Positions 7,201 through 10,200 of a DNA stretch of 64,000 nucleotides are shown in pieces; within the stretch, counting starts at the first letter, position 1; each line of letters begins with the position of its first letter. The notes beneath the pieces were generated by a model. It searched no databases. It saw only the letters and a program-made list of their open reading frames with translations, and was not told the DNA's origin. Where the stretch lies: positions 800,721 to 864,720 of the forward strand of contig NC_082631.1 of assembly GCF_030936135.1 (NCBI RefSeq). Direction: 5' to 3'. Source of the DNA: Gavia stellata. Its lineage: Eukaryota; Chordata; Aves; Gaviiformes; Gaviidae. Both the position numbers and the translations under genes were made by a program.

Positions 7201-10200
7201 CGTGAAGATGTCCCAGGAGGACACCCAATGCCAGGGACATCAAAAGATGGTGCAGGATGGAGGGAGATGGCCAGTACCTGCAGGACCACAGAGATGCCCT
7301 GGGAGAACACCCAAAGCCAAGGACACCGGGAGAGGATGACGCAGGATGGCGGAAGGTGGTTGGCACCTAAGGAGCATGGAGATGCTCTGGGAGGGTGCTA
7401 AGGACACCCAGAGATGACACAAGATGGAGGGATATTTTTTGCACGTGAAGAAGGATGAAGATGACCTGGGAAGCCACCTGGTGCTGACGACACCAAGAGA
7501 CGATGAAGACTGTGACTTTTTTGGCATGTGAAGGAGGATGAAGATGCCCTGGGAGGACTCCCAACACCGAAGACACCAAGAGATGATGCAAGATGAAGGG
7601 AAGCATCTTGCATGGGAAGAAATATGAGGATGCCTTAGGAAGCCACCTGGTACTGAGGACACCAAGAGATGATGCAAGATGGATGAATGTTTTTCTTCGC
7701 ATGTGAAAGAAGATGAAGACGCCCTGAGAGGGACGCCCAACAATGAAGACACCAAGAAGACGCAAAACCAAGCAAGACGTCCCAAATCCAACCTCAACAT
7801 CTCCGGCCATTGAGAACCCATCTCGTGGTGGCCATGCAGCCCCACCCAACCGCCCACCACCGCCCCCGGGGCCAGACCTGGCGCCGTATTGGCTGCCACC
7901 CCGGTTGGGCGGTGGCGGTGGCGGCGTTGAGCTGCTACTTGCCTGGCAGGTTGTTGATGTAACCACCGTCCATCAGTAAGTTGCCGTCCTTGGGGTCGCA
8001 GAGTGGCGGTAGGTACCCAGAAAGGGTCATGCTGGCTCGCACGTACCGCCAGAGCGAGCCTGCGCCGGCGGGAACAAACGCAATGAGCACGGCCCACCCG
8101 AGACCCGTCCCCCGGGGGGCTGCCCCTCGCCCCTGCCCGTGCCCAGGGACGTCTGCACCCCACGGGTGCCCAACGGGCACCCGCGGGTGGCAGAGGAACC
8201 CGTTGCGCGCCCTGACTGGTCATTTGCAAAGCCCAGGTGGTTCAACCTGGGATGGGACGTGGTTTTGGGGGGTGGGAGGGGGTGGGTTTTTTGGGGGGCC
8301 GGTGGCCCCGGCGAGTGAGATGCTGACCTGGGACATTGTTAACATAGCAGCCGTCCACGAGCCAGTGGCTGTCCTTGGGGTCGCAGAGCGGAGGCAGGTA
8401 TGGGGTATAAGACGCACTGGCTCGGACGTAGCGCCAAAGGCTGCCTGCCGGAGGGAGAGGACACGGTCACGGCCACGGGGGGACGGGACGTGCCCGAGCA
8501 CCCGGCGGTAGGTGACCGAGGATGCTGGCACCGCGTCGGCGGGACGTTTGCGGCCCCAGGACCAAGGGAAAGCACCTCGGCCATGCCAGGATGGGGAAGG
8601 ATGGGTGGGCGAGATGCTCGCCGGAGCGTTAGGGGTGGTGAGCGGGGATTAGTTGGCGTTAGAGGCCAGAGGAGCAGGCAGAGCGAGAGCCAGGCTGCTT
8701 TACGAGCCACCGCGTGCGCCCCGTGGACGGCTCAATGTCCCAGGTGAGCTCCGACACCAGGCAAGGAGGAGGGGCAGCCACCGCAACGTCCCCACCACCG
8801 CGATGTCCCCACCACCGCGATGTCCCCACCACCACCACATCATCCCCACCACCAATTGTCTCCACCACCACGTTGTCTCCACCACCACCACCACGGCATC
8901 ATCCCCACCACCATGGCATCCCCAGCACTGCCACCGCGTCCCCATGCCCCACATGCCGTGAGCGTGGGTTACTGGGGTTAGTGGTGAGCAGATATGTTAG
9001 AGGGGGACATGCATGCTCGGGGTTCTGCCGCCAACCCCACCGAGGACGTGGGGCACAGCCAGACCCCCATGGGGAGCTGAGCATGGTGGGGTCACCAGCA
9101 CCAGGCGGCTCTGGGAAGCCACCACTGCCCGGGCTCACCGTGAGCCCTCCAAGCTCTTTCCTTGCCGTGCCAGGATGCGTCCTCCCCTTGGCACGTGGCA
9201 AACCTTCCCCCCCGTGGGGCAGCAACACCATTTTAGGGTGCTGGTGAGGAGGGTCCCCGCAAAGGGGGGATGTGGTGGCACCGGAGAGCTTCCCCAGCTC
9301 CCCGGGGAGCTCTTACCGTCCGTGTGCACCCGCATGGCCGAAGCCGTGATGTCGGTTGTGACATTGAAGTAGGGCAGCCACAGGTCCTGTGGGGACAAGA
9401 TGGGGTGGGTGACGCCGTGGGGACATTGGTGGGTGGGTGGGGAGCTGGTTGGACCCCCCACCATGGGTGGGTGCAAGACCTGGGGGGCGTCCGTGTGACG
9501 CACCTCGATCTGCTTGTCCTGGAAAACTTTGTTGATGCTGGCGTTGAAGGCTGAACCCGAAAACATGGAGGTGATGGGGTAGGTGAGGTCCAGGACGGTC
9601 TCAAACACCGAATTCATGCACTGGAGGAGGAGGAGGATGAAGAAGAAGAAGAGAAGGAGGAGGAGGATGAAGAAGACAAGAAGGAGGAGGAGGAAGAATA
9701 ATAAGGAGAGAAGGAGGAAGAGGAGGAAGAAGGAAAAGGAGAGAAGGAGGAGGAGAAGGAAGAAGAAGGAGGAGAAGGATGAAGAAGGAGGAGAAGGATG
9801 AAGAAGGAGGAGGAGGATGAAGAAGGAGGAGGAGGATGAAGAAGGAAGAGGAGGATGAAGAAGGAAGAGGAGGATGAAGAAGGAAGAGGAGGATGAAGAA
9901 GGAAGAGGAGGAGGAGGAAGAAGGAAGAGGAGGAGGAGGAAGAAGGAGGAAGAAGGAGGAGGAGGAAGAAGAAGGAGAAGGATGAAGAAGGAGAAGGATG
10001 AAGAAGGAGAAGGATGAAGAAGGAGAAGGATGAAGAAGGAAGAAAGAGGAGGAATAAGAAGGAGGAGGAGGAATAAGAAGGAGGAGAAAGAAAAAGGAAA
10101 GAATAAGAGGAGAAAGAAGCAGCAGAAGAAAAAGAAAAGGAGAGAAGGTGAAGGAGGAGGAGGAAGAAGAAAGAGGAGCAAAAAATAGAAGGAGAAGAGA

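What the first reader, a model, noticed from the sequence alone, without database searches (positions are those of the whole stretch)
7943..8444. Tandem duplicated PNPLA6 exon offering two versions of the catalytic-aspartate segment
Two adjacent 117-nt exons (8444-8328 and 8059-7943) share phase, length and most of their sequence, but differ round the active site: [21 protein letters not shown] against [22 protein letters not shown]. The DGG of the Ser-Asp dyad becomes DGC. Both are open with usable splice sites, so the esterase could switch substrate pocket or activity by mutually exclusive splicing. I do not know whether this is already described for PNPLA6.
Basis: partly seen in the sequence, partly recalled or inferred. 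Interest (0 to 1): 0.75.

Follow-up and report, generated by a model that had tools for sequence, protein, structure and literature searches.

The report
Bird nerve-esterase gene with spare active-site exon
The gene for neuropathy target esterase (PNPLA6) in this bird-like genome carries two interchangeable copies of the exon that holds one of its two catalytic residues, so it could make two versions of the enzyme; the extra copy looks old and kept by selection, but no RNA evidence was available to show that both are used.

Summary
Two 117-nt exons (8444-8328 and 8059-7943, minus strand) share phase, 81/117 bases and 27/39 residues. Each keeps the catalytic Asp (DGC against DGG), an open frame and usable splice sites. 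The upstream copy was kept as protein: dS is about 1.5 (bootstrap lower bound 0.69), dN/dS about 0.16, and 0 of 20,000 neutral simulations kept 27 identical residues. Flanking introns show no similarity, so the duplication is old. The paralogue (PNPLA7 by recall) shows one copy only.

The standard exon ends in a GC donor, the only one among 11 exons checked. All four splice outcomes stay in frame, so frame alone cannot enforce exclusivity. An upstream-intron segment complementary to the alternative donor could hide it; the controls are mixed, so it is a lead only.

Best reading: either-or exons that swap part of the NTE active-site region, a known kind of event. I found no description for PNPLA6 in the ten searches of the open library. 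Expression, exclusivity, activity and conservation in other species could not be tested.

The parts
8328..8444 (-). Alternative copy of the catalytic-Asp exon (ASYTPYLPP...[13 protein letters not shown]), phase 1, acceptor ccggcag|gc, GT donor ccag|gtcagc
7943..8059 (-). Standard copy of the catalytic-Asp exon (MTLSGYLPP...[12 protein letters not shown]), phase 1, acceptor ggcgcag|gc, GC donor ccag|gcaagt
   Evidence: 36/39 residues identical to the paralogue exon
8060..8327 (-). 268-nt intron between the two copies; holds an inverted repeat at 8152-8194 (20-nt arms, 85% complementary, 3-nt loop)
9317..9386 (-). Preceding exon ([23 protein letters not shown]), GT donor gtaaga
5741..5889 (-). 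Following exon ([50 protein letters not shown])
10427..10583 (-). Exon with the catalytic-serine motif ([13 protein letters not shown], GxSxG)
8722..8749 (-). Upstream-intron segment complementary (27 of 28 aligned positions, with a 10-nt bulge on the exon side) to the end of the alternative exon and its donor (8322-8359); possible sequestering arm, old inverted copy, or chance; lead only

Best explanation
These are tandem-duplicated alternative exons of PNPLA6 (neuropathy target esterase, NTE). Each mature mRNA most likely takes one copy or the other, giving two full-length esterases that share the Ser exon and the catalytic Asp but differ at 12 of 39 residues around the Asp. Shown: homology, shared phase, open frames, splice signals, long-term purifying selection on the upstream copy, and retention of the catalytic Asp-Gly. 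Inferred: that both copies are spliced into mRNA, that use is exclusive, and that the upstream copy tunes substrate or inhibitor preference rather than abolishing activity. The proposed control, also inferred, is a choice between two donors: an atypical GC donor on the standard copy and a GT donor on the alternative copy that may be hidden by pairing with the upstream intron, so that the standard copy is the default and the alternative copy is used in particular tissues or stages.
For: Exact exon boundaries and identities. dN 0.24 and dS 1.46 between copies by NG86 (ML: 0.22 and 2.0). Bootstrap: dS lower bound 0.69, median dN/dS 0.15, upper 97.5% 0.38; 12.6% of the 1000 resamples were saturated at synonymous sites. 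Neutral simulation: 0 of 20,000 runs keep 27 identical residues at 36 base differences, maximum 26. Flanking introns not similar, so the duplication is old. Spliced with the upstream copy the domain scores 98.2 bits to Pfam Patatin, against 103.6 with the standard copy and 69.4 with neither. In the 22 bacterial relatives that align over the exon (of 26 loci found) the Asp and next Gly are invariant, and the upstream copy keeps both. Published human work (passages seen): Asp1134 of this exon is changed to Val in a disease family (PMC9618546); a 14-residue insertion between Pro1142 and Ala1143, this exon's end, abolishes NTE activity (PMC13282554), so mRNAs holding both copies, which carry 39 extra residues at this exon, would probably make inactive protein. 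GC donors are reported as enriched in alternatively spliced genes (PMC2490688, abstract).
Against: No transcript data were available. No other vertebrate locus could be examined. The paralogue does without a second copy. All four splice outcomes are in frame, so frame does not force exclusivity, and a 268-nt intron is not short enough to suggest steric exclusion. The third residue of the D-G-G motif, Gly in 20 of 22 bacterial relatives and Cys in 0 of 22, is Cys here, which could mean lowered activity. The protein has changed faster in the upstream copy: dN 0.24-0.26 to the standard and paralogue exons, which differ from each other by 0.05.
Confidence: 0.66

Rival explanations
1. The upstream copy is translated but makes an esterase with little or no activity: Gly to Cys beside the catalytic Asp, and a changed Met-Thr-Leu-Ser-Gly segment, would spoil the pocket, so splicing acts as an off switch or makes a non-catalytic NTE that keeps its other domains.
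For: DGC is absent from the 22 bacterial relatives counted (the search peptides included MDGGYINN, so the sample leans towards DGG). Human T1115P, at position 12 of this exon, abolishes activity (PMC13282554 passages), so the segment is sensitive.
Against: Asp and the next Gly are kept; Ala 11, Ser 12 and Val 30 of the upstream copy occur in 6, 11 and 13 of the 22 relatives; the Patatin score drops only 5.4 bits; the pair as a whole shows purifying selection.
Confidence: 0.15
2. The upstream copy is a relic: once used, now silent in this lineage.
For: No transcript evidence was available; an in-silico fold of 9100-7700 buries its donor (mean unpaired probability 0.08 against 0.35 overall).
Against: Open frame, intact acceptor and GT donor, low dN/dS at high dS; 0 of 20,000 neutral simulations fit. 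A loss in the last few million years could not be seen by these tests.
Confidence: 0.12
3. Both copies are included together in some mRNAs, giving a patatin domain with a repeated 39-residue segment.
For: The frame stays open through the alternative-standard junction (441 residues from the exons joined).
Against: A 14-residue insertion at the end of this exon abolishes human NTE activity (PMC13282554 passages), so such a product is unlikely to be the selected one.
Confidence: 0.06
4. Add-on to the best explanation, not exclusive with it: the choice is set by a long-range RNA hairpin in which upstream-intron bases 8749-8722 pair with the end and donor of the alternative exon (8359-8322) and hide it until a protein or RNA opens the helix.
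For: Gapped complementarity reached by 0 of 2000 shuffles of the intron; duplex energy reached by 0 of 400. Seen from the intron side, the window 8763-8703 has the second-best duplex of 281 windows, with 8395-8295 (-85.5 kcal/mol). In a fold of 9100-7700, 16 of the 17 positions of the donor arm pair with probability 0.97-1.00.
Against: The ungapped match alone has E 0.12, and four other matches in the region score as well or better. In ungapped helix scores 12% of positions do as well. Seen from the exon side the duplex energies (-62.6 to -69.4) are near the region median of -65.6. It may be a relic inverted copy. The alternative donor stays buried even when pairs beyond 300 nt are forbidden. 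No related genome was available to test covariation.
Confidence: 0.12

Closest known systems
Tandem duplicated exon substitution events (mutually exclusive homologous exons): 236 events in 214 human genes, Martinez-Gomez et al. 2022, PMC9741552 (abstract, passages and section 10 seen)
   Same: Adjacent homologous exons with core functional residues kept in both; KHK has a catalytic arginine inside such a pair and it is conserved in both isoforms (section 10).
   Different: Exclusive transcripts not shown here. The paper's main text mentions no PNPLA gene; its gene lists are in supplements that could not be read, so PNPLA6 may be among them.
PNPLA7, single-copy exon in the same genome (C24:2546257-2546373; gene name recalled)
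   Same: Same exon position and phase; 36/39 residues identical to the standard copy; colinear exons.
   Different: One copy only: an ungapped translated scan of both flanking introns, both strands, found no second copy (a copy broken by indels could be missed). Ordinary GT donor.
PlpD patatin-like protein (PDB 5fqu, 5fya)
   Same: Only PDB sequence matched; aligns across the Ser and Asp exons with the alternative copy (E 1.5e-29) and over the standard exon and the next one (E 2.1e-10).
   Different: Not a PNPLA protein; reads LLVDGGMVDNIP at the Asp motif. That it is bacterial is recalled.
Drosophila swiss cheese (NTE orthologue)
   Same: A review reports two isoforms, both of 1425 residues (PMC9025805 passage), which would fit an exon swap of equal length.
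   Different: Where those isoforms differ was not seen.

Membership tests
Tandem duplicated (mutually exclusive) exons | Adjacent internal exons with sequence homology | tested here: met
   27/39 residues, 81/117 bases, 268 nt apart (coordinates)
Tandem duplicated (mutually exclusive) exons | Same length and reading-frame phase, usable splice sites | tested here: met
   117 nt, phase 1 at both ends; acceptor AG; GT donor on one copy, GC donor on the other
Tandem duplicated (mutually exclusive) exons | Protein-level constraint between the copies | tested here: met
   dN/dS about 0.16, upper bound 0.38; neutral simulation 0 of 20,000
Tandem duplicated (mutually exclusive) exons | Transcripts use one copy or the other, not both | not testable with these tools
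   No RNA data; both and neither are in frame
Tandem duplicated (mutually exclusive) exons | Pair conserved in related species | not testable with these tools
   No other vertebrate genome held; the paralogue shows no second copy
PNPLA6/NTE patatin esterase | Patatin domain with GxSxG serine and Asp-Gly dyad | tested here: met
   PF01734 103.6 bits (standard) and 98.2 bits (alternative); GTSIG in exon 10583-10427, DGG/DGC in the two copies
PNPLA6/NTE patatin esterase | Exon end matches human PNPLA6: Asp1134 eight residues before Pro1142, then an intron before c.3428, that is after the first base of codon 1143 (Ala) | tested here: met
   Asp at position 31, Pro at 39, then Ala split after its first base, next exon ADIA; human numbers from PMC9618546 and PMC13282554 passages
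PNPLA6/NTE patatin esterase | N-terminal membrane segment and cyclic-nucleotide-binding domains | not tested
   The upstream part of the gene was only partly traced (paralogue matches up to 12304)

The most novel reading that the evidence does not exclude
Bird NTE is two enzymes from one gene: a regulated exon swap replaces the segment carrying the catalytic Asp, giving a DGC form with a different lipid or organophosphate preference, and the choice is set by a long-range RNA helix that hides the alternative donor against a GC donor on the standard exon. NTE assays on hen tissue would then have measured a mixture.
Probability: 0.13. Interest if true: 0.78.

Novelty: new member of a known kind. 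Interest (0 to 1): 0.5.

Why it matters
NTE is the target in organophosphate-induced delayed neuropathy; the activity was first identified in chicken brain, and adult hens are an established animal model (PMC9025805 passages). If birds can swap the segment around the catalytic Asp, species or tissue differences in organophosphate sensitivity and in lysophospholipid turnover get a direct, testable genetic cause. A swap that includes a catalytic residue is on the less usual side of its class: in the survey of human events the swapped regions were 14% of residues but 10.7% of predicted functional residues (PMC9741552 section 10).

Tried and rejected
Chance similarity or assembly artefact: rejected. 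The copies differ at 36 of 117 bases, lie on one 1.07-Mb contig, and a search of the whole genome with the standard copy returned only itself, the upstream copy and the paralogue.

Recent duplication: rejected. Synonymous sites are near saturation and flanking introns show no similarity. Whether the duplication is older or younger than the PNPLA6/PNPLA7 split could not be settled: the alternative copy has 27 identities to the standard copy and 28 to the paralogue.

Exclusivity by frame: rejected, because double inclusion and double skipping stay in frame. Exclusivity by steric limits: unlikely with a 268-nt intron (inference). AG-free stretches before the two acceptors are 80 and 60 nt, within the 16-199 of the other nine exons (where the count stops at 199), so there is no sign of a distant branch point as in OGDH (PMC7969005, start of abstract in the listing).

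Pairing of the standard GC donor with intron sequence: rejected as chance; 26% of positions in the region are in helices at least as good. The alternative-donor pairing was kept only as a lead: 12% of positions are in ungapped helices at least as good. Overall folds are unremarkable: 8480-7900 has z -0.69 (21 of 100 shuffles as stable) and the intron between the copies z -1.65 (17 of 200).

A known RNA family in the window: none at gathering score.

Papers. Six peptide strings from both exons and the following junction: 0 papers. PNPLA6 with 'mutually exclusive': 12 papers listed, passages opened in two, neither describes this. PNPLA6 with 'duplicated exon': 0. 'Neuropathy target esterase' with four further terms: 1 paper, passages opened, not relevant. 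'Neuropathy target esterase' with 'splic': 77 papers, 40 listed, passages opened in five. PNPLA6 with four splice terms: 3 papers, passages of one seen. Chicken NTE: 8 papers listed, passages of one. Swiss cheese: 0. One search listed only 40 of 1,551 papers and cannot be read as a complete negative. The chicken NTE paper (Gene 2009, cited in PMC9025805) is not held.

Full report
Setting. The window is part of contig C38 of a 1.32-Gb genome in 1,185 contigs. On the minus strand lies a gene whose exons are colinear with a paralogue on contig C24. I call them PNPLA6 and PNPLA7; the names rest on recall plus agreement with published human exon ends. Human Asp1134 lies in exon 29 (PMC9618546 passage), and a variant at c.3428-44 inserts residues between Pro1142 and Ala1143 (PMC13282554 passages), so the human intron falls after the first base of codon 1143. 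Here Asp 31 and Pro 39 are the same eight residues apart and the next Ala is split at the same base.

Observation. Both are 117 nt, phase 1, with AG acceptors. The upstream copy ends in a GT donor (gtcagc). The downstream, standard copy ends in a GC donor (gcaagt), the only GC donor among the 11 exons examined, and the best fit of the 11 to the consensus otherwise (8 of 9 positions). The paralogue exon has a GT donor.

Is it maintained? The copies share 81/117 bases and 27/39 residues; 8 of 14 comparable fourfold sites differ. NG86 gives dN 0.236 and dS 1.46; ML gives 0.220 and 2.0. Codon bootstrap gives a dS lower bound of 0.69, a median dN/dS of 0.15 and an upper bound of 0.38. Neutral simulation from the standard exon to 36 base differences kept an open frame in 37% of runs but reached 27 identical residues in 0 of 20,000, maximum 26; this simple model ignores GC bias. 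Introns around the copies show no similarity to each other (222 and 157 of 500 base shuffles do as well). So the duplication is old and the upstream copy was selected as protein for most of that time. Against this, the upstream copy has changed faster: dN 0.24-0.26 to the other two exons, which differ from each other by 0.05.

What the swap changes. Twelve residues differ. Position 12 corresponds to human Thr1115, whose change to Pro abolishes NTE activity (PMC13282554 passages); it is Ser in the upstream copy and in the paralogue. In the 22 bacterial relatives that align over the exon (of 26 loci; one of the six search peptides was MDGGYINN, so the sample leans towards DGG) Asp 31 and Gly 32 are invariant. 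Position 33 is Gly in 20, Ala in 1, Glu in 1 and Cys in none. Ala 11, Ser 12 and Val 30 of the upstream copy occur in 6, 11 and 13 of them. The spliced patatin domain scores 103.6 bits with the standard copy, 98.2 with the upstream copy and 69.4 with neither. The fold and dyad are thus likely kept, with DGC as the odd feature. No solved PNPLA6 structure was found by sequence; the only match is PlpD, 5fqu/5fya.

Splicing logic. Using either copy gives 402 residues from the exons joined, both give 441, neither 363, all in frame. Exclusive use therefore needs splicing control. mRNAs with both copies would carry 39 extra residues at an exon whose end does not tolerate a 14-residue insertion in human NTE, so they are unlikely to be the useful product. 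GC donors are reported as enriched in alternatively spliced genes (PMC2490688 abstract).

Possible control element. The segment 8749-8722 of the upstream intron is complementary to the end of the upstream copy and its donor (8359-8322): 27 of 28 aligned positions with a 10-nt bulge. None of 2000 shuffles of the intron scores as well (best 35 against 37), none of 400 gives as strong a duplex, and seen from the intron side it is the second-best duplex of 281 windows. In a fold of 9100-7700 it forms with probability near 1. But the ungapped part alone has E 0.12 with four matches in the region as good or better, 12% of positions lie in ungapped helices as good, and seen from the exon side its energy is near the region's median. 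It may be a regulatory arm, a relic inverted copy, or chance. A genome search with this intron stretch (8800-8660) matched only itself.

Paralogue. In PNPLA7 the introns on both sides of the exon were scanned, both strands, in ungapped translation; no second copy was found.

Known or new. Swaps between homologous tandem exons are a known class, including an enzyme with a catalytic residue in the swapped part (KHK; PMC9741552 section 10). For PNPLA6 I found no description in the ten searches of the open library (one search was on GC donors). Searches showed only part of their hits, few papers were opened, the library lacks most subscription papers, and supplements were not readable. A review states four human isoforms, one zebrafish isoform and two Drosophila isoforms of equal length (PMC9025805 passage); the passage does not say where the Drosophila ones differ. 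Databases of predicted bird isoforms may already carry both exons; that could not be checked.

Verdict. Observation confirmed. Interpretation plausible and partly supported: a maintained alternative catalytic-segment exon in NTE, a new member of a known kind, whose expression and effect remain to be shown.

Noticed in passing
window 7943 (minus-strand donor): The standard copy of the exon uses a GC donor (CAG|GCAAGT) with all other consensus positions matched; the other ten exons checked use GT.
   Followed up: yes
window 8152-8194: Inverted repeat (20-nt arms, 85% complementary, 3-nt loop) inside the intron between the two exon copies; the whole intron folds only slightly better than shuffles (z -1.65).
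   Followed up: partly
window 9624-10292: About 0.65 kb of purine/pyrimidine-asymmetric tandem repeat (GAA/GAG on the + strand) running right up to the acceptor of the exon at 9620-9504.
   Followed up: no
window 6562-6767 and 7394-7757: Diverged minisatellite of about 86-nt units in the intron after the duplicated exons; by eye similar units lie between. One stretch of that intron (6299-6317) is 79% complementary to the alternative donor.
   Followed up: partly
window 4729-5490: Diverged minisatellite of about 21-nt units in the intron between the exons at 5668-5516 and 4699-4583.
   Followed up: no
window 3150-4300: Long CT-rich repeat (units like CCTTGGTCCATCTCCTGTCCCC on the minus strand) in a late intron of the same gene, seen by eye.
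   Followed up: no
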